NCBI RefSeq assembly: GCF_000165425.1
Contig: NW_001798955.1
Location: 434,001-498,000 of the forward strand
Length of the DNA stretch: 64,000 nucleotides
Source: Paramecium tetraurelia
Lineage: Eukaryota; Ciliophora; Oligohymenophorea; Peniculida; Parameciidae
Direction: 5' to 3'
A program made the translations under genes and the position numbers. Shown piece after piece: positions 50,921 through 64,000 of this stretch; position 1 is the first letter of the stretch, and every line of letters starts with the position of its first letter. The notes below the pieces were generated by a model, which was not told the DNA's origin, did no database searches, and saw only the letters and a program-made list of their open reading frames with translations.

Positions 50921-53900
50921 TCAATATTTTTTTGTATTAGATAAAAGCTATTCTTCCATAGCCTTCTCCCCTTCCTTTATTTGATCAATCCTTTCTTTAA
51001 TTATTTATCTAATTTTATAAATAAATTGATAAACATTATCTTAAACCTATATCTCAGACTATATAAAGTTTATCAATTTTTCTTGTTCAAAATCCGTTCT
51101 CTCACATGAAATATAGTTTTTAAATTCATTCGTTACTTTATGTTAATCAATATCTAATTATCTTAAATTTGGAATTATTTTCTTAGAAATACTTAGCTTC
51201 TTCATTTTATCATAAATTATCTATTGTGAATTTACAATATCTAGGTCTAATTAAAGAGATTTTTATCTTAATATTTCATACTCCTAAAATAGTAATTTCA
51301 ACACATAACTAATTTCTTACTTTATTTTAGCCTCAGCTTCAACTTATTATTGTTATTTAATCTGAATATCCTATTACTATTCTTCTTTCTATAAGATTTC
51401 CTAAAATTTGTTTTTCATCAAGGTGGCCAATTAAGGGTCTTTCATGTTTGATATATTTGTATATCTGTTATTTTTGTAATCATCAAAAAAATCTATAAGA
51501 TTATTCCAATCAAAATCCTCTTTTCCATCTAAATCTTAGATATCTGGAATTTCATCAAGAGTCTGACGAATACTAAAAATTCTAGCTTATTATTCTCTTA
51601 TTTGATTATCCTTTTATAACAGAACTTCATGTTTAGATTACAATATTTTTTATAATTCTTTAATTGTTTCCTCATCTTATTTTTCAGCTTTTTCCTTCTC
51701 TTATTAGATTTAGATTTTAATGTCTTTATCCTTACCTTTACCATGACTTTCTTATTATTTTTTATGAAAACAATTCTCTTTTCTTTTTCTATCTTACTCC
51801 ATTTCCAAAATGACGTTTTATTTAGATTTAAAATCATCCTAAGCTCCAAAAGAATAGGCATTTTTTGAATGCTTAGCACTGCCTCCTGGTTTTGGTGTAG
51901 GATTCTAAGATCGCGTACAGTTATCTGGAGTCATTGATTCCTATTTTTCTTATATTACATTATTAATCTAAATTTGAGGCCTTTTCTACTTCTATCTGAC
52001 TAAGAGGTTATTTTAATCCCTTTCTTAAGCTACCAATTAGTTTATCATACTGTCATCTGTTCTTCCTGTGTCTAATTAATCTTCCCTGTAATTTTTATTT
52101 AATCCTTATAAATTCAATTACATTGCAGGACGAATGTTATTGGGTTCTTAATGCTATTCTTCCTTTTATATTTTTTGTTGAGAATCTGTAAATTGATCTA
52201 TTTCTTTCTCTAATTCTTAAGTTCGATAGCTTGGGATATCATTGCAATTAAAATCCACTTCGGATTCATTCTAATGACTAGCATCCACGTTCTCTTGAGT
52301 ATTTTTTGGTATAGATTTCTAAGATTTTTGTGATTTAACTGAGTGCTTTTGAGAATCGGTATCCTTAATTTGATTTTCTTCCTAATGAATATGTTTTTAT
52401 GAATCATCATCCTTGAATTCATTTTTATCCTAATCATTAAGATTTTCATCGTCATGTTATTAATTTTCATCATTATTATTACATTTACTGTCCTAATAAT
52501 TGATTTCATCGTAATCTTAGAATTGTTCTTTTTTCTCAAAATTATCTTCTTCTTTTAATTAAATAACTTCTTTTTCATCTTAATGGTCTTCTTGTTGTTA
52601 TTATTGAACTTCTTATACTTCTAATTGTACTTGATCTTACTCTTAATGATTTTCATCTTCTCTTTAATAATTTTCGACTTAATCTTAATAATCTAAATCT
52701 TACTCCTAATGATCTACATCTTAATCTTAAAGACTTTTATCTTGTGCTTAATGATCTAAATCTTTCTTCAAATTATCTTCTTCTTGTTCTTAATGAATTT
52801 AATCATTTTCTTAATGATCTAGATCATATTCTTAATGGCCTTATTCTTAATGATTTTTGTCTTGATTTTCTTCTTGCTCTTAATTTTCTTCTTGCTCTTA
52901 ATGGTCATTGTCTTATTATAAAGGAGTTTCATCTTGCTCTTAATGGTCATTGTCTTATTATAAAGGAGTTTCAACTTGCTCTTAATGTTCATTGTCTTAT
53001 TACTAAGGAGTTTCATCTTGCTCTTAATGATCTTCGTCTTATTCTTAATGATCTCTATCTTACTCTTAATGAATTTATTCTTATTCTTAATGATCCCCAT
53101 CTTACTCTTAAAGACTTTCTTCCTATTATTAATGATTTCCATCTTCCTATTATTAATGATTTCCATCTTACTCTTATTGATTTTCAATTTATTCTTTATG
53201 ATCTTCATCTTACTCTTAATACTCTTCATTTTACTCCTGGTGATCTCCATCTTACTTCTAATGATTTTCTCCTTGCTATTTCTGATCTTCATTTGGCTTT
53301 TAATGATCTTAATCTTACTTTTAATGATCTAAATCTTGCTGTTAATCATCTTCATCTTGTTTTTAATGATCGTCATCTTGCTTTTAATGATTATCATCTT
53401 ACTCTTAATGATCTTCAATTTGCTCTTAATGAACTTCATCTTGATTTTAATGATCTTCAATTTGCTCTTAATGATCTTCATCTTACTCCTCATGATCTTA
53501 GTATTAGTCTTACTCTTAATGACTTTCGTCTTACTATTACACTTACTCTTTATGATTTTAATCTTGCACATCAATATTTTCAACTTATTCAGAAGGATTT
53601 TCATCTTGTTCTTAATTTTCATTTTAATGTTAACTAATTTTATCCTAAACCTTAATGTTTTCCTCAGAATTCTACTCATTATTAGCATCTTTAGGTAGTT
53701 CTTTTTCTTAATCATTTTGTTATATTGAATTAATCTATTGTTATTCTTAATTTTCGATAGAGTCTATTTAATCTTATTTAAATTGATTCTCCTAATCATC
53801 AATTTTGAACAATTATTTTTCATCATTTAGATTATTAAATTTCGATTATTCAACGCCTAAATCTATTTTAGAAATCTCATAACTTTATTCGAAAAATATT

Positions 53901-56900
53901 GTATTTTATTAATTGGCTTAATAAACACTTCCTAAATCATCAAATTTTAATTCTTAAACAACTGCATTATTTGTATCCTAAATGATGTAATTTTAGAACT
54001 CTATTTTTTGAGTTTCATCTTATCCTTATGAGTTATTTTCATTCTCTTGATATGGTTCCTCATCAAAATTATTCGATTCTTTGATTTCCTTTTAATTTAA
54101 ATCTTTTGTATTTTCATCATCATTTATAGTTTCTGGTTAATTTTGAGAAATTTAATTAACAACCTCATCAAGATTATTTTGATTTTAATTGTCTTTGTCC
54201 TCAATAATTTATTCTTCCTATGGTTCTACAAGAGGATTGGATTCAATATTTTCTTATTCTTGAAATTCAAATTAATCCTCAATATGTGCTTAAACTATGG
54301 TTTACAATACATTTGAAGGATCATTAACTTATATTTATTGTGATGTATCTTTTGATGTTTCATTATTTTATATATTATCTGAATTTTGATTTTCCTCATT
54401 ATTTTGCTGTTCATTTGTAATCTAATCTATTTGATCTCCTTCAAATGAATTTTTATCGAGGTTTTCATCATCATTTTGAATCTCATTTACTGTTGGTTCA
54501 ACTTAGACTGGTTATTGTTATTACTATCTATCTTCTTATTTGATTAATTCTTATTATGTCTCCTATTCAACATCTATAATTTCTTCTAATAGGTTTTCAT
54601 CCTCATCTTTATTTATATTTTAATCATTTTGATTTGAAATTCCTTATTATTACTCAATATTATGCTAAATTTCTTAAGATAAACCAACTCCAATATTGTC
54701 TTACTCTTATCCTCTTACATCTGATTCGATCTGTTCTTCTTAGTTCTGCACTTCTTCTTATTATTCTTTTCTTCCTTCCTTCATTTACAATTATTCTGTT
54801 TCGAAATTTTCTTAAATCTCTTTATTTTGATCTTCATCTCCTTATTTACTAATCTATGAACTGTCCTTTACTATATTTTGTTCTTCAGCCAACTCTTTAT
54901 CTGACTATAATAAATTATCTTCAAGTTGATTAGAAATACCTTGATTTTCTTCATTATTTTCTTCATTCTTTTCTGTTATATCCTCCTGTATCTATTTTTT
55001 CTCATTAATATTCTCTTAAGTATCATTCTAATTAGTTTCATCATTAGCTTAATTGACAACATCCTCTATAATATCTTAATTATCTTTCTAATTTTAAATA
55101 TTGAGAGTTTCATCATTTAGAATTTGATCCTTACTTAAATCTTAAACCTCTTCCTAGGATTTGTTTTATGTATCATTTACATCGCTGTGAGTTTATATTA
55201 TTTCAGTATTTTAATCATCTCTTGGTTAGGGTTAATCAATAGGGTTTTCTTCAATAATTTCTGAACTATTTTTAATTTATTTAAAGGTATCCTGGTCCTC
55301 TTCCTCCTTTTTAATAATTTGATCTGTCTATTATGGTTATTCTTCCTATATTTGTTCAACTGTTAATAATGATGGATCATCCCCTTGATTATTATTTTCT
55401 TATTTTTAAATTTCTTCTTAATTCTAGTTTTCCAAATCTTTTTCTTTCAAAGGAGAACTTTATACTTAACTTTCATTTTGATCCTACATCAGCATTGAGT
55501 TCTAAGACTAATCTAATATTTAAATATTTTAAACTAGTTCACCAGTTTCTTCAATTTCTAATTTTTATTCATTGATATCTTCAACTTTTTTATTATTTTC
55601 TAATATTCTTTCTGGATTTTCATTTTACTCACAAGTTCCATCCTACTATTATTATTCAACTTCAGTTGGATTTTATTTAATTTAATTGGATTATGTTTCA
55701 ACCTAATTATTTATATCCTAATTATCCTATTCTAAGTTGGAGTTATCTTAAACCATATCTTATTATTCATCCATAACTTATTATTCATCATCCTATTGAT
55801 TAAGGATTTGTTCAGTAACTTAAATATTTTATTCATCTAATATTTATTGTTTATTATTGCTATTATCTTAATTAATATCTTCTATATTATTTTATATTGT
55901 TTCATTTTGTATTTCTTAATCTACCTCTTATTCTATATTCTAATTATCATTTAAAATCATGTCTTCTTAATTCTAGGTATTTTCCTTTTCTACTACCTCT
56001 ACAATATTATTGAGATTTTCGTCATCATTATTGATACTGGGATTTTCTTATTGAGTTTCAACATCTTATTTTATTTCTTCTTATTGAGTTTACTCTTAAT
56101 TGTCTTGTATTAAATCCTCCTTTTCTTGTTCCTTGTTTTAAAAATCTTGATTCAATTAAAGATGAAATTTATTTTTGGTTTATTTTTCATTATCTTATAA
56201 AATCTAATTAGCTGAATCATCATTTTCATTTTATTGATTGTTACTTTAATTCTCTTCAAATCCATCCTCTTAATTTGTTGGAATTATATTATCTGGACTT
56301 GCTTCTTCATCACTATCTTCCATATTCTTTTTCACAAATTCTGACTCCAAATCACCAAGACCATAGTCTTCCTCTTCTTCTTGATTATTTTCACCTGGCT
56401 AAGAAATTTATATTTAGTAAGGTTCTTTAGTATTTAACTCTTCCTATTTATTTTCCTAATTTAGATCCTAATGTCTAGCTGATTAACTTCCTTTTTATTG
56501 ATCTTCTTGAACTTCAATTTCTATAAATTTGGTACTTGAAATATCCTAAGATTGTTTTTTTTAAAAATTGACATTGTTTTTTTGAATAGGATCCTCTGTT
56601 CTATGTGTTAGAACAGGTTCACTGGTTTCCCCATCAGGAATATCATTCAATATTTAGCTCAGGGCATCATTACTCTGAATATCTTCTTAGATTGTATTCA
56701 ATCTATCTCCTATTGCATCTGGAATTTATTTTAAATCTCCAACTTCAAGTGGTCCTTTGTTGAATTATTAATTAAATTAATCTTCTGATATAATTTAAAT
56801 TTAAGGTAGAGGTTTTAATTTTTAATTTTCAGAATCCAAATTTTAGCCTGTTTCAATATTATCTGTTTAATTGATATCGCCTTCGATTGATAACGTATCA

Positions 56901-57826
56901 TCAGCATTTTAATCAAGTTATGGATCCTCATTGTTTATCTATTGATCATTTGCTTACATAATTTGCTACTTTTCAGGTTCATCGTAATTTCCTTATTAAT
57001 CATAATTTTCATAGTAATGTTACTCATCTGAGGCATTACTAGTGTGGTCCATTTAATCAAATTAATTTGACTCTGACCTGCCTTCATTTACTGTTTCTTC
57101 ATAATTTTATGTATCAAGTTAATCATTTTCATAATCTTAATGATCTTCAAGATCTTAGGGTACTTGATTCTAATGTATCGCATCTATTTACTCTTGATTA
57201 TTAATTATTACTTATTACTAAGTGTCTTCTTACTGCACTTTAGGTTGTTGTTATGAAATCTATTTTTATTTTGTGGGTTATGCATCTTTATTTTAAGGAG
57301 ATGGTTTACGGCTTGAAGAGTTGCTATTTGCTGTCTTATTTAATTTGTTCATAACACTTGGACGATGTCCTTATAAAAGATTCTCCTTCTTTTAATCTGG
57401 TTTTTATTTTTATGTCCCATGTTTTAAATATTATGGTTAATTACTGATAAGAGTTTATTTTTACTTAAACTCACTTGAATTTTTTGGTCTCCCATCATCT
57501 ATTTTAGAAGTTATCTACTTTGAGGATACCTTTTGCTTAATAGTTAGTTAGCCCTTAACAATTATTTATTCCACTACTTTTGCTGGCGATGATTCTTTAC
57601 TCGCAATTTTCTTTGTAGATAAATCTGGAATATTTGAAGATGAAGATGTTCTACTCCCCTACCTTGACTTTTATAAAGGTTTTTAAAGAGTGGTATTTGA
57701 TCCCTTATTAATGTTGTTAGACGAATTTTCCCGACTTAATTTAGGAGGATTTTAGGATTCATTAGAAGGCTATGTAATTTTTTATTGCGATGCTGATTTT
57801 GAACTTTTAGAAGGAGGCTTTAACAT
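50921..57826 (-). CDS. Giant acidic, glutamine-rich repeat protein
   Basis: A single uninterrupted frame of 2,301 residues when TAA/TAG are Gln; there is no intron. It begins MLKPPSKSSKSASQ. The first 250 residues are Ser/Lys/Pro-rich and basic; residues 250-2,000 are extremely rich in Glu, Asp, Gln and Asn, with few hydrophobics. Residues about 1,420-1,730 are a tandem heptad array (see repeat feature). The last 300 residues change to a normal mixed composition with a long coiled coil (KIKQEISYVLKLLFQEYEIL and on). Overall it resembles disordered acidic scaffold or Ca-buffering proteins, or a giant basal-body linker; no domain is recognised. Under the standard code it is shattered into dozens of pieces. 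Confidence 0.75.
52630..53570 (-). repeat. 21-bp tandem repeat encoding (HQEQDED)n heptads
   Basis: About 40 imperfect 21-bp units inside the giant acidic gene. The consensus peptide is HQEQDED, with variants HQKQDGD, HQEQIED, PLQQDND and YQEQDED. Most Gln codons are TAA/TAG and His is CAT, so the plus strand reads as repeats of ATCTTACTCTTAATGATCTTC. Units 53000-53200 (three copies with PLQQDND) are longer-period duplicates, showing recent expansion. Confidence 0.88.
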
Positions 57827-57871
57827 TTTTATAAATTTTATAAAATTTAATATATTTATAATGTAAATTCT

Positions 57872-59294
57872 TCAATAAAACCTTTAGGATGTATATCCTT
57901 AATTCATCAACTAAGTATTATTAAAATTCGGATAAGCGGATTAAATTTAAAGTGTTTAAGGATAGCCTTAATATTTGTTAGGCTAAACTAATTAAGTTTG
58001 TTTGAACGGTTATTATTGACCATAAATTTATTACGGGTAGCCGCTGTAAAGTAATGGGTTTTAGATTTACTACTGTGGAACCTGTTAGAGAGGCTAATTT
58101 TATACTTATGGATAGCCATAAGACTGCTCCAATCCTGGATGTTGTTAAATAATTGAGGACTAATATTAATCCTTTACTTCAATGTTGCCCTAAACTTTAG
58201 AACTTTAATATAAATTTGTTTGAGGAACTTGAGAATTCTGAGATTTTACCGTTAAGACTTTGCTCTGAATAATGTCAGGGGATGCAAGCTTATGAATTTC
58301 AAGAAACTCTGGCAAATCTTAATGAACTACATTTACAATCTCTGCAATTTGTGAACTAAGTTATGAGCTAATAGTTGATTTGATAAATAAATTACGATTT
58401 AAAAGAATTAAAAGATATCAATGATGAAGTATCTTTAAATCTGGTCTAAAATTATTAGGCTGCTTAAAGATATAAATTATTATCTTGTTAAGTTGTAGAT
58501 AGTAGGTATGGCAGTAGAGAATACATGCAATCTGGTTATTTTAATTTATCTAGGAAATTGTGATGAGAATCCAATCTTGCTTATAAAGTTGATATAAAGG
58601 CCTTTCCATCACGATTGAAGTTATCGTAGTTCTTTCTCTATTTGTTCTCCAATTCAATTTCTAATGCATTGAAATACTGCTCTACTATATTTATTATTCT
58701 TTTTTTAACTTCCTTTAAGTTATATACAGTTTCTTAAGTAGATGAATATGCTTGAGATATAGATTTTTAAATATCTGATTTTGCATCTGCCAATTAATTT
58801 GCTTAATATTTTCTATCGAATATACCTTGTTAACAGACATCTTGGTGAACAGCAGTCAATATATTCTCCAAACATTCAAGTCTAGGGTATGACTTAAATT
58901 CTGAGTGTTCATACACGTGTTCTTTCACGCATTCTGGACATAATGGCAATAGACATTCCTTGCATTTACAAAAATTTGTTAGTGTCTATCCTTAATGATT
59001 AAAACAAATAATCTAGTCTCTATTATATAATGTACTTTTGGCATATTTTATGCTGTAAAAACAAAAGGAGTTGTTCTATTATTACACCGTTATTCATCCC
59101 ATGAGGATTCAGAATTGTATTATTGAACTTGAGGTCTAAAAGACGATTGCTATTAATTCTATTATTTATCAAGTTATTTTTCCTTCCCATATAATTTATG
59201 ATACATATTAAAATTTTGAGGACTCCATGAATTCAGGATTCAGATCTTGTTAATTTAAGTAATTGTTCTTCTTACCCAAAGATGTTTCTGACAT
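57872..59294 (-). CDS. B-box-type zinc-finger protein with Gln/Pro/Tyr-rich tail
   Basis: 449 residues in four exons; introns at 59183-59204 (22 nt), 59013-59035 (23 nt) and 58368-58395 (28 nt). After a Gln-rich head comes a B-box-like zinc site: ICFNHQGQTLTNFCKCKECL, LPLCPECVKEHVYEH, with Cys/His spacing like TRIM B-boxes. A long coiled coil follows (DAKSDIQKSISQAYSSTQET to LENKQRKNYDNFNRD), as in RBCC/TRIM proteins. The last 130 residues are Gln/Pro/Tyr/Gly-rich with repeated YPQ and GYPQ units (SYGYPQVQNQPLQQVP), a prion-like tail. No RING is seen, so ubiquitin-ligase activity is not supported. The stop lies only 46 bp from the start of the giant gene. Confidence 0.75.
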
Positions 59295-59602: not shown

Positions 59603-62600
59603 TCATAAAATCGTAAACTATAACTCCTCAAATGCTTTCTTATGGCTTTCTTATTTAATATGTTGATTGTAAGCTTATTCATTACCTTCAAAATATCCCT
59701 TTTCATCATATCTTTATTCTACATAGCAACATTTGCATGTAAACTTCAAATTCTACAATTTTCGCTATTAAACAGCCTAAAAATTAATATAAATTGAATA
59801 CCAAATTTTCTTTCTTTTTAATCTCATCAATAGTTAACTTTCGAAATATAAATTTCTCCTCTTCCATACTTGTATAAACTAATTTCAATTTTTAATCGAT
59901 TATGTAAAATTTCTAAATATCTCCTATTTGCACTATTTCTTTAAATTGCTTAATCTTAGGATAGAAGCCAACAATGTGTTTACCAGAATTACAGGTTATG
60001 AACACATAATTGATTGGTTCAAAAATTAGTTTGAGTTTTTCAAAGATGCTCTAAATTCTTTGATCTGACAGAAACTCCTTAATTTAATCCACCTTCATTG
60101 AGATATTGAAATAATCACCAAAAGAACTTACATCCAAAATCATGACCATCCTCTTAGCCCAGTCCAAGGAATCATTATCTAATTATCGTCTAATATCTGG
60201 ATCTTCTGATATATATGATAGTCCATTTGTTCTACCAACAGTCATATAATCATTGCATTCCAAACAACAAATCTGAGTGGTGTTACCCATTCTTAAAAAG
60301 AAATTCTACTTCTTTATTGTATTGACTATGTTTTATTTCCAAGTCTGGTATAATTATTGAATTTGAACATATATTTTAATTCCCTCATTATCAAATTGCT
60401 TAGGTACTTCAGAATCATAATCTGTTCTTATGATTTAGATGGGATTCATATAATCTAAACTATCAGCCTTCTGTTCTTCCAATTCAAAGTGTTAGATTCT
60501 CTTTCTTTTCTACTTATTTTCACTTGATTCTTAAAATGATAGGATTTCATCTTTCAATTCAATATCAAATAATTATTTCCATCTTTCTTCTGAAGTATAT
60601 AATATTTTCTATCTCACCTTATCCAACTATCTTATCTTTTACCAAATTCCGCTATCTGTATAACTCTATTCTAAAATCTATAATTTTATTTATTGTCTTA
60701 TTGAATTAATGGTTTACAAATCATCCTCTGTAATAAAATAATCAAATTAGTAGTCTCTGTCATCAACCTTTGCCTTTATAAAGTGTGTCTTAGTGTTATT
60801 ATGAAAGAGTTTCACCTGTACTCCAAATAGCATAGCCAATATTTATGACCATAACAAATACTTATTTTAATCTATCGAAATCACTTGTCTTGTGGAATTT
60901 CTTTTATTTGAATCCTTCTCTTGAACTTCATAAGCTACTAAGACTTTATTTTAGTCCAATGAGATAAAATTTATGCTGTCAGGATCACAATTAATTTCTT
61001 TATGCAAATGAATCAATCTACAATAACATCCGTAGAATATCAAAGATTAAGTTGTTTCTATGAAATTAATGATATCAACTTAATTGCTTGTTGTGAAAGT
61101 TTCCCAAGGGATCTTTTAAGGCTATTTTCTACTTTATTATCTTTTCATTAATTCACATTCATGCATAAGTCTTTTTAATACATATTTCAGTTTAGTCAAG
61201 TCCACCTCTTTGAATTCTATTATTATTGTATTATTTAATAGAACAACACTTTAAACCCAACTCTTAGTAAATTTTGATTTTGCCTTTATTTCTGTTAGCA
61301 ATTACAAATCCGATCTGAAATGAAATCTGGGTAATCCCTATCTACCCTAAGCCTATTCATCATGATATGCCAATATGTCTTTCAATTGGTCATCTAACCT
61401 TTTTTAATTTCTATCTAATTAATGGAAATCACAAAATTATTCCATTATCATAGCAATCTTCTCCTTTATCATCTCTTTATTCTAAATATTTACTCCATCA
61501 AATTTAATATTATCACTCTCTAACATTATTGTACGGGTGTAATCAAATCCTTAATCTTTCAAATACTTTATTTTTTTATCAAATCTCTCATCTTTTGATA
61601 ATCTTAATGTATTTTATTTAAAAGCAGCACAAAAGGCACTCTTAACTTTAAGTTAGTTTTCTGGATTATTCAAATCGAGAGGCTCATTCTTAAATTACTG
61701 ATCTAATCTCATGAATAATTCATATTTCACATTTAATATTTCTCTCATGTTCTTTGGATCAATAGATCTCTAATCACAATATAATTTTTCTAAAGGTCCT
61801 ATATTTTTATTTGTAAATCTCTTTAATTCCCTCTTTAAATCATGTTGAGTGATTGTTGATTTAAGAATATTAAAAAACTTAATTTCCCATTCCTAATAAA
61901 CTCTTAATTGTATAAGTAGATCATCCTCATTGCCTTTGTCATAGAGATATAAGGAATTGAAGAACAACTTTTAAGATCTCATAAAATGATGTAAAAAGTA
62001 ATTCTTCCTTTAACTCAATATGGCTGCTATGGTGACTCCTTCATATGCACATCCAATTATGTTACAATACATAATGAATCTTGTTAAGAAGATATCAATG
62101 GGCATATCACCCATCATTTATCCCAACCTAGTTATATGGATGGTTGAATCTTGAGAGTTTGGATAAGAGAGAGCCCCTAACATTTAGAGATTGGAGATGG
62201 CATTCTCAATTTATTTAGTGCTTGGAGGGTCAATAGCAGTTTTAAGAGTGCGACTGGGATCATTGAAAACCTACTTTAAATCAACAATTGTATTAAGTTC
62301 TAATTTCTCAGTTTTATTTTCATTTTCCATGGATAGTTGATATAATTTCTTCAGTCTCAATATAATAATTTCTAAGGGACATCTCAACATCTCACAAACA
62401 GAATATTGTGTCATTTTATTTTTAAATATGGTTTAAGGTATCAAACGAAAACAAGTTCCAGGGAATAAACGTCCAGTCCTTCCCTTTCTTTGATCAGCAG
62501 ATGCTTTAGAACAGTATTACAATGCTAACTTTTCTGTTAGATTCTTAGGATTGTATATAATTTCTTTGGTTAAACAGAAATCAATAACAAATCTACAATC

Positions 62601-64000
62601 CGGAACAGTAATACTACTTTCAGCCACATTTGTGCTTAATATTAATCTTCTTTTTCTCTTGTGAGTCTCATCAAACTCTTTAGGGATAGTGACAGTGCTA
62701 TGTAGTATGATAATGATGAATCTCTCTTCCCCAAATTTTTGATAGATCTCTTCTCTAATATCCATGATTTCTTAATATCCAGGAAGGAAAATCAAGATAG
62801 CCCCAGCTCCTTACATGCCTATAGTATCTTTAATTTTATTGGAGTCTAAGAATTCTAGTATTTATAACATGGCTTAGACACTATCCTATTGAACCTTAGG
62901 AGTATCTTAAAAGTATAATGAGGTTTGAAATCTTAAAGGTTGATGGAGTTCTAATTTCGCAGTGTCAGCATCATTGAAATATGAATGTATTTCTTCCATA
63001 TAATAAGTTTCAATAGGGTATTTCTAAGACATAGGGACTTTAATAATAGGTGCAGCTTGGTCTTCATCTCCATCCAAGAAATGCTATCCTAATTCTCTTA
63101 ATTCATTCTACTTCTACTCTAATTCTCTCTATTCTTAGGTTAATTGAACTTATCTCTCGATTTCTTTCCATGGTTGACCCCATTGCGTGGAAATGTCATG
63201 ATCTTCTTCCCCTTCAAATTTGATGGATATTTCTACATCATTTTCTTATGTCATATCTGTAAACTTGTACTTTCTATCTACTCTTTGTATATATGTTAGA
63301 TCATCAACCAAATTAAGTGATTTTTTGGAAAAATAGTTAGCAAATTTATCACTGCAGATAGTTGCAGACATCAAAATCAATTTAGTTTCTGGAAAATGCT
63401 TCAATAGATTTTTGATTATGATTAGACAAAAGTCTATGTCAATGTCTCTTTCATGGACTTCATCCATTATAATGTGAGTATAATCTTTCAAGACTTGTTC
63501 TCTGTCATGCACTAATTTTTATAGAAATATTCCTGTGGTTACAAATTAGATTTAGGTTTGTCTAGAACTTATTTGTGAATCCATCCCAACCTAATAGCCA
63601 ACAAGAGTGCCTAATTAACAATCTAACTCCTATGCCACTCTTTTGGCCAATGATTTAGCAGCCAATCTTCTTGGTTGAGTACATAGAATATTCACTGTTT
63701 TTGGTGTTTCGAATTCTGTGTTTGTATGATGCCTCAAAATCATCTGTGGCACTTAGGTTGATTTACCACAACCTGTCCCTCCTGTAATCACAATGACTTA
63801 ATTATTCTGCATTTCTTCCAGAATTTTGTTACTCACATTATATATAGGCAACGCTTTTCGTTCTCTTTCTGTCAGTGGTTTTATAACTCTTTTCCTCAGA
63901 TGAGTCGATTATGATATCTAGGCCTCTTGTTGTTATTATAATGGAATATAATCGCCAAGATTATCATCTTAAGTTCTCACCTTTTTCCTTACTATATCCT
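59603..64000 (-). CDS. DEVH RNA helicase, TDRD9/Spindle-E-like (5' end beyond window)
   Basis: At least 1,457 residues; the start lies past 64000. One 25-nt intron is at 59777-59801. SF2 motifs in order: I GGTGCGKSTQVPQ (near 63765), Ia TQPRRLAAKSLAKRVA, II IIMDEVHERD, III LILMSATICSDKFANYF, then IFLPGYQEI, LHSTVTIP, V ILSTNVAESSITVPD, and VI DQRKGRTGRLFPG. DEVHERD, STNVAESS, CLTKEI and LHSTVT all follow TDRD9/Spn-E more closely than splicing DEAH helicases. HA2 and OB-type regions follow, then about 500 residues including CCLECNDYM and a C-terminal Cys/His finger (FTCKCCYV....YNQHIKQESHKK). In animals TDRD9/Spn-E acts in piRNA silencing with a Tudor domain; a Tudor domain is not obvious here. 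The function in this ciliate is inferred. Confidence 0.82.

What the first reader, a model, noticed from the sequence alone, without database searches (positions are those of the whole stretch)
59603..64000. TDRD9/Spindle-E-like helicase in a ciliate, with a different C terminus
Motif II is DEVH and the blocks around motifs III-VI match TDRD9/Spn-E better than splicing or HrpA-type helicases. In animals this family works with PIWI proteins. Ciliates use PIWI-bound scan RNAs to direct DNA elimination but helicases in that pathway are only partly known. The C terminus here lacks an obvious Tudor domain and instead ends in a Cys/His finger, so it may show an older or alternative architecture.
Basis: partly seen in the sequence, partly recalled or inferred. 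Interest (0 to 1): 0.72.

Follow-up and report, generated by a model that had tools for sequence, protein, structure and literature searches.

The report
Ciliate Spindle-E-type helicase without Tudor (EMA1a)
This is the already studied Paramecium gene EMA1a, a helicase that helps small RNAs decide which DNA is thrown away, and its sequence places it with the animal transposon-silencing helicase Spindle-E/TDRD9, sharing that protein's terminal zinc finger but lacking its Tudor domain.

Summary
In detail: a DEVH-box helicase of 1472 aa on the minus strand, window 64046 (46 nt past the end) to 59603, with one 25-nt intron, a terminal C2H2 finger and no detectable Tudor. The gene is not unknown. 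Against its single close copy, nt 163-1176 are 88.1% identical, with 193 nt in long perfect runs: the figures published for Paramecium tetraurelia EMA1a/EMA1b. EMA1 is reported to peak early in autogamy and to be needed for scnRNA selection, Ptiwi09 chromatin binding and DNA elimination. The family guess holds: the core groups with Spindle-E at 100/98, and groupings with DHX29, YTHDC2, DHX36 or DHX9 are rejected. The 'different C terminus' is half right: Tudor is missing, but the finger matches that of insect Spindle-E in place, H-x5-H spacing and 12-residue tail. Further C-terminal similarity is weak and some tests failed. Best reading: a Tudor-less sister of Spn-E/TDRD9 in the ciliate PIWI pathway, a link found in no paper searched.

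The parts
59603..64000 (-). EMA1a coding sequence as far as it lies in the window (start ATG at 64046, outside; 1472 aa in all)
63237..63839 (-). RecA1 helicase lobe, aa 70-270 (motif I GGTGCGKS aa 89, DEVH aa 195-198 at 63453-63464, MSAT aa 226)
62805..63236 (-). insert of about 144 aa between the two RecA lobes (aa 271-414), kept in both duplicates
61827..62804 (-). RecA2, winged helix and HA2 region, aa 415-740 (VIDFCLTK, compare Spn-E VVDFCLMK; QRKGRTGR aa 519)
61494..61826 (-). proposed first half of the OB-fold (OB'), aa 741-851, with GFDYTRTIML resembling Spn-E GFDPRNTVYL
   Evidence: weak but colinear HMM match
61047..61493 (-). about 150 aa between the proposed OB halves (aa 852-1000), where animals have RRM plus eTudor; no Tudor here, RRM not shown
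60687..61046 (-). proposed second half of the OB-fold (OB''), aa 1001-1120, similar to post-Tudor Spn-E
59802..60341 (-). conserved stretch of unknown fold before the finger, aa 1236-1415, 175 of 180 residues identical in the duplicate
59777..59801 (-). 25-nt intron
59642..59737 (-). C-terminal C2H2 zinc finger, aa 1429-1460, 12 residues before the C terminus

Best explanation
The gene is Paramecium tetraurelia EMA1a. It encodes an ATP-dependent DExH helicase that descends from the same ancestor as animal Spindle-E/TDRD9, keeps the C-terminal C2H2 finger of that family and has no Tudor domain. Reported for Paramecium Ema1 or its Tetrahymena counterpart: it associates with the PIWI protein carrying scnRNAs, is needed for PIWI binding to chromatin, for scnRNA selection and for DNA elimination. 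Inferred: it uses ATP to remodel the PIWI-scnRNA particle so that the guide pairs with nascent transcripts. Without Tudor it must reach PIWI by another surface; the finger or the stretch before it are the obvious candidates.
For: Identity: nt 163-1176 against the only close copy are 88.1% identical (893 of 1014) and identical runs of 23 nt or more sum to 193 nt, as published for EMA1a/b. No other DEAH helicase on this contig appeared (capped candidate lists). Family: a tree of 19 rows with references taken from or verified against tool output joins EMA1 with Spindle-E 9nhs at 100/98; 23 rows with recalled references, 100/98; 18 rows with seven paralogs dropped and recalled DHX57 and DHX30 added, 100/99. 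AU tests reject EMA1 with DHX29 (p 0.007), YTHDC2 (1.7e-6), DHX36 (3.7e-7), DHX9 (0.012) or all four (0.004). C terminus: an HMM of three animal sequences with Tudor left out ranks EMA1b first and EMA1a second or third (by setting) of 3002, 3000 of them shuffles; in the same setting the recalled DHX9 OB-fold scores -1.0 bits against 17.6 and 11.2. Finger: same terminal place, H-x5-H and 12-residue tail as in Spindle-E; 0 of 13 other DEAH loci fetched from the genome show one near a stop within 1.5 kb of the core. Function: Paramecium; Tetrahymena; early peak in autogamy.
Against: By raw PDB score DHX29 ties with Spindle-E. In the reciprocal search the best single pieces in the genome are paralogs on C45 (221 bits) and C163 (210 bits); EMA1a leads only when its three pieces are summed (137.7+79.9+36.7). 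The EMA1 branch is long (1.2-1.8 changes per column). With the post-Tudor part alone EMA1b ranked first but EMA1a only fifth of 1861 reported, behind shuffles. hhalign of two-row profiles did not beat column shuffles, an averaged-profile alignment gave only p 0.019 and 0.0022, and recalled TDRD9 alone was not above chance (149 of 1000 shuffles as high). The RRM insert is not supported by sequence (rank 963 and 1101 of 2002). Diagnostic columns: 5 of 23 shared, against 0-3 in paralogs. The finger loop differs (x21 against x12).
Confidence: 0.85

Rival explanations
1. EMA1 is an RHA-type helicase (DHX29/DHX36/YTHDC2/DHX9 kind) that was independently recruited to a PIWI pathway; its place next to Spn-E comes from long-branch attraction, and the finger is convergent.
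For: DHX29 ties with Spindle-E by PDB bit score; the EMA1 branch is long; the finger loop is longer (x21 against x12); C-terminal similarity is weak.
Against: A site-heterogeneous model gives 100/98, 100/98 and 100/99 in three data sets, one without long end branches flagged. AU tests reject the four single groupings and the joint one. The C-terminal match is absent from the recalled DHX9 OB-fold. The finger sits at the same end with the same tail length.
Confidence: 0.1
2. EMA1 lost a Tudor domain that the common ancestor with animals already had, rather than animals having gained it.
For: EMA1 also has about 150 aa between its proposed OB halves, about where animals carry RRM plus eTudor, so the site may have been open to change in both lines.
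Against: No Tudor remnant seen: no Pfam hit at E up to 10, and EMA1a 700-960 and 900-1250 align with the Tudor part of Spn-E no better than shuffles (p 0.53 and 0.76).
Confidence: 0.3
3. The finger is mis-annotation: the true protein stops at 59706 in the unspliced frame.
For: The unspliced frame is open to 59706.
Against: The 25-nt GTA...TAG intron is conserved (1 difference in 25) and 15 of 19 differences in exon 2 lie at third positions of the spliced frame.
Confidence: 0.03

Closest known systems
Paramecium tetraurelia EMA1a (PTET.51.1.G0010313 = PTMB.220 = GSPATT00000299001) and its duplicate EMA1b
   Same: It is this gene: sequence fingerprint 88% and 193 nt, RNA helicase, one close copy in the genome
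   Different: Nothing found; the passages seen call it an RNA helicase or putative RNA helicase and name no subfamily
Tetrahymena Ema1p (TTHERM_00088150)
   Same: Reported as the orthologue, needed for scnRNA selection and PIWI-chromatin contact
   Different: Sequence not available here, so domain layout not compared
Spindle-E (Drosophila; PDB 9nhs_G)
   Same: Helicase core clade, weak match of both OB-fold halves, terminal C2H2 finger with H-x5-H and 12-residue tail, PIWI partner
   Different: Spindle-E has a Tudor domain, a shorter finger loop (x12) and, by my estimate of the OB end, about 70 instead of about 300 residues before the finger; it acts in nuage in ping-pong
Vertebrate TDRD9
   Same: Helicase core clade (sequence recalled)
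   Different: Has Tudor; reported to lack the finger
DHX29, DHX36, DHX9, YTHDC2
   Same: RHA-type DExH cores; DHX29 ties by bit score
   Different: Grouping with EMA1 rejected; no match to the C-terminal family profile for the recalled DHX9 OB-fold, others not tried

Membership tests
EMA1 (Paramecium) | 88% identity and 193 nt of perfect identity between EMA1a and EMA1b over nt 163-1176 | tested here: met
   893 of 1014 identical, identical runs of 23 nt or more (39+35+33+32+31+23) sum to 193; 11 other offsets along the gene give 218 or more (published values)
[quoted passage not shown]
   published for this gene
Spindle-E/TDRD9 helicases | Helicase core in the Spn-E/TDRD9 clade | tested here: met
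   100/98, 100/98, 100/99 in three trees; alternatives rejected
Spindle-E/TDRD9 helicases | Tudor (eTudor) domain | tested here: not met
   no Pfam hit at E up to 10; positive control Spindle-E 1.6e-8
Spindle-E/TDRD9 helicases | C-terminal C2H2 finger (in metazoan Spn-E, lost in mouse TDRD9 per PMC12690538) | tested here: met
   loop longer (x21 against x12), so shared descent of the finger is likely, not shown
Spindle-E/TDRD9 helicases | OB-fold split by an insert (RRM and eTudor in animals) | tested here: inconclusive
   both OB halves match weakly in order with about 150 aa between; RRM itself not supported; no usable model
Spindle-E/TDRD9 helicases | Acts with PIWI proteins | not testable with these tools
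   published for EMA1
DHX36/YTHDC2/DHX29/DHX9 (RHA group) | Core grouping with these proteins | tested here: not met
   AU p 0.012 to 3.7e-7
Splicing/HrpA-type DEAH | Core grouping with DHX15-type proteins and Paramecium DEAH paralogs | tested here: not met
   13 paralogs and DHX15 lie on the other side of a 100/99 branch; HrpA itself was not put in a tree

The most novel reading that the evidence does not exclude
A PIWI-bound Spindle-E-type helicase with a terminal C2H2 finger already existed in the common ancestor of ciliates and animals. Ciliate genome scanning and animal piRNA ping-pong are two uses of the same inherited PIWI-helicase module, the Tudor domain being an animal addition. The finger is then part of the ancestral RNA- or PIWI-handling core of the machine.
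Probability: 0.45. Interest if true: 0.75.

Novelty: new variant of a known kind. Interest (0 to 1): 0.5.

Why it matters
In the passages I saw, EMA1 is handled as an RNA helicase with no named animal counterpart. If it is the Tudor-less sister of Spindle-E/TDRD9, two fields that study PIWI-partner helicases separately can trade results. One has finger mutants that impair AGO3 localisation in flies; the other has EMA1 loss that detaches Ptiwi09 from chromatin in Paramecium. It would also date the helicase-PIWI partnership far back and show that Tudor is not needed for it.

Tried and rejected
AlphaFold2 with the two available sequences gave useless models for the C-terminal part from aa 690 (725 aa, finger exon left out; mean pLDDT 32.5) and for about aa 1229-1415 (40.9), so no fold search was run. 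A profile of the two duplicates' C-terminal part found nothing in PDB (best E 2.9). The finger alone found no zinc finger in PDB by sequence. Pfam scores the finger only weakly (zf-C2H2_2 E 0.0074, below its cut-off). hhalign of two-row profiles was not above shuffles. The averaged-profile alignment was weak; in it one comparison of EMA1a 1100-1472 with the Tudor part of Spn-E reached p 0.019, which I take as chance among 12 comparisons. The post-Tudor HMM put EMA1a only fifth. The RRM profile failed. Aronica et al. 2008 on Tetrahymena Ema1p is not held, so whether it already names Spn-E could not be checked. Further in-frame introns were considered; no GTA...TAG candidate of 18-35 nt in exon 1 had a length divisible by three.
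Full report
What is there. Read in the ciliate code it is open on the minus strand from the window's end to 59706. The flanking DNA of the same contig (C2, 981,684 bases, of a 69-Mb genome) shows the first in-frame ATG at window position 64046. A 25-nt intron, GTATTCAATTTATATTAATTTTTAG in the transcript sense (59801-59777), is conserved in the duplicate gene. In the last exon the two duplicates differ at 2, 2 and 15 sites in codon positions 1, 2 and 3, so the finger frame is under protein-level selection. No GTA...TAG candidate of 18-35 nt in exon 1 had a length divisible by three.

Which gene it is. The genome search found one close copy, on C211; the other matches are pieces of DEAH helicases at 30-44% identity. 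The copies are identical at 1371 of 1472 residues. The Gtsf1 paper (PMC11724296, passages seen) states that the RNAi segment nt 163-1176 of EMA1a (PTET.51.1.G0010313, PTMB.220) is 88% identical to EMA1b with 193 nt of perfect identity. Counting from the first ATG of the window gene, I find 893 of 1014 identical (88.1%) and identical runs of 23 nt or more that sum to exactly 193; the next longest run is 19 nt. Windows of equal length at 11 other offsets along the gene give 218 or more. PTMB.220 is GSPATT00000299001 (PMC3091696, passages). That its numbers place it near the middle of the largest chromosome, as the window gene lies on C2, is my inference. I take the identification as settled.

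What is known of it. In PMC3091696 the gene has an early expression peak in autogamy and is called the orthologue of Tetrahymena EMA1. [quoted passage not shown] In Tetrahymena Ema1 is described as promoting the scnRNA-nascent transcript interaction, needed for target-directed scnRNA degradation and for H3K27me3 in the parental macronucleus (PMC10830130 and PMC5666084, passages). The original Tetrahymena paper is not held.

Family. By PDB sequence search, Spindle-E (9nhs_G) and DHX29 tie at 254.7 bits, ahead of DHX36, DHX9, splicing DEAH proteins and HrpA. A reciprocal search with the Spindle-E core finds, as best single pieces, other paralogs (C45, 221 bits; C163, 210 bits); EMA1a comes first only when its three pieces (137.7, 79.9, 36.7 bits), split by the insert between the lobes, are added. 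Trees decide it. With references copied from or verified against tool output (19 rows: EMA1a/b, Spindle-E, DHX9, DHX29, DHX36, 13 Paramecium DEAH paralogs) EMA1 and Spindle-E form one group at 100/98. With human TDRD9, fly Spindle-E, YTHDC2 and DHX15 added from memory (23 rows) the support is 100/98. With recalled DHX57 and DHX30 added and seven paralogs dropped (18 rows) it is 100/99. Forcing EMA1 together with DHX29, YTHDC2, DHX36, DHX9 or all four is rejected (AU p 0.007, 1.7e-6, 3.7e-7, 0.012, 0.004). Of 24 columns identical in three family rows and absent from five others, EMA1 has a letter at 23 and shares 5, paralogs 0 to 3: the same direction, but modest.

C terminus. Probes with recalled TDRD9 and fly Spindle-E letters pulled out the real C-terminal letters of Spindle-E 9nhs (residues 686-1369 and 1140-1437). 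Two studies describe the finger. PMC4232550 (passages) thought it unique to Drosophila; PMC12690538 (passages) finds it universal in metazoans and lost in mouse TDRD9, places RRM and eTudor inside the OB-fold, and shows that a finger mutant impairs ping-pong and AGO3 localisation. The 9nhs protein ends SCKLC...H-x5-H with 12 residues after the last His (6 seen, 6 from its length); the fly protein likewise (recalled letters; the paper's H1422 falls on that His); EMA1 ends FTCKCC...H-x5-H with 12 residues after the last His. The loop is 21 instead of 12 residues. None of 13 other DEAH loci fetched from this genome has such a finger near a stop within 1.5 kb of its core (any frame, introns ignored).

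Tudor. Pfam's Tudor model hits the Spindle-E C-terminal part at 1.6e-8 and nothing in EMA1 (E up to 1; up to 10). Pfam finds no OB, RRM or finger in Spindle-E either (E up to 1), so silence on those is no evidence. A profile of the three animal proteins with Tudor left out matches EMA1 in two colinear blocks (aa 763-851 and 1016-1091), EMA1b first and EMA1a second or third of 3002, 3000 being shuffles (12.9 and 7.1 bits by default, 17.6 and 11.2 without composition correction); in the latter setting the recalled DHX9 OB-fold scores -1.0 bits. A plain alignment of aa 900-1250 with post-Tudor Spindle-E scored 58, above all 1000 shuffles (highest 56). Against this, the post-Tudor HMM alone put EMA1b first but EMA1a fifth of 1861 reported, hhalign of two-row profiles was not above column shuffles, averaged-profile alignment gave p 0.019 and 0.0022, TDRD9 alone was not above chance, and the RRM itself finds no support. 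Between the OB-fold and the finger EMA1 has about 300 residues, against about 70 in Spindle-E by my estimate; aa 1236-1415 are 175 of 180 identical in the duplicate, with no Pfam match above cut-off and no usable model.

How it most likely works. Reported: PIWI association and the need for Ema1 in PIWI-chromatin contact. Reported for Spn-E in silkworm (PMC11094040, passages): ATPase activity but no release of Ago3 cleavage products in vitro, the authors speculating that ATPase activity regulates the dissociation of protein assemblies. Inference: EMA1 is the ciliate member of a PIWI-particle remodeller family; ATP turnover lets the loaded PIWI engage nascent transcripts, after which PRC2 recruitment or scnRNA decay follow. 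Tudor-mediated docking is not available to it, so contact must run through other parts.

Membership. EMA1 belongs to the Spn-E/TDRD9 clade by the core and, likely, by the finger. It is not a Tudor-domain protein, so I do not file it as a TDRD9 in the strict sense. In print: no paper in the searched library joins Ema1 of ciliates with Spindle-E (0 papers) or TDRD9 (one paper, unrelated by title, not opened). Of 20 listed of 31 papers, and of 15 listed of 15, none shows Ema1 together with TDRD9 or Spn-E; (TDRD9, ciliate, helicase) listed 5 papers, none on ciliate helicases by title. Papers outside that library were not seen.

Judgement. The gene and its role are known, which lowers the interest; the family link, the shared finger and the missing Tudor appear unreported in what I could search and are testable at once in Paramecium.

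Noticed in passing
window 58299-59093, minus strand: Ciliate-code ORF next to EMA1a with a weak B-box-like zinc finger (Pfam zf-B_box E 0.014, below cut-off).
   Followed up: partly
window 50921-57871, minus strand: One open frame of 2316 aa very rich in Q, E, N and D with repeated H-Q-E-Q-D-like stretches, 339 codons read otherwise than by table 11; looks like a large low-complexity protein.
   Followed up: no
window 62805-63236 (EMA1a aa 271-414): Insert of about 144 aa between the two RecA lobes, less conserved than the lobes between the duplicates (128 of 144 identical); it splits database matches and so hides EMA1 in the reciprocal search.
   Followed up: partly
window 59802-60341 (EMA1a aa 1236-1415): Stretch with a CCLEC motif, almost unchanged between the duplicates (175 of 180), no Pfam family above cut-off and no usable model.
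   Followed up: partly
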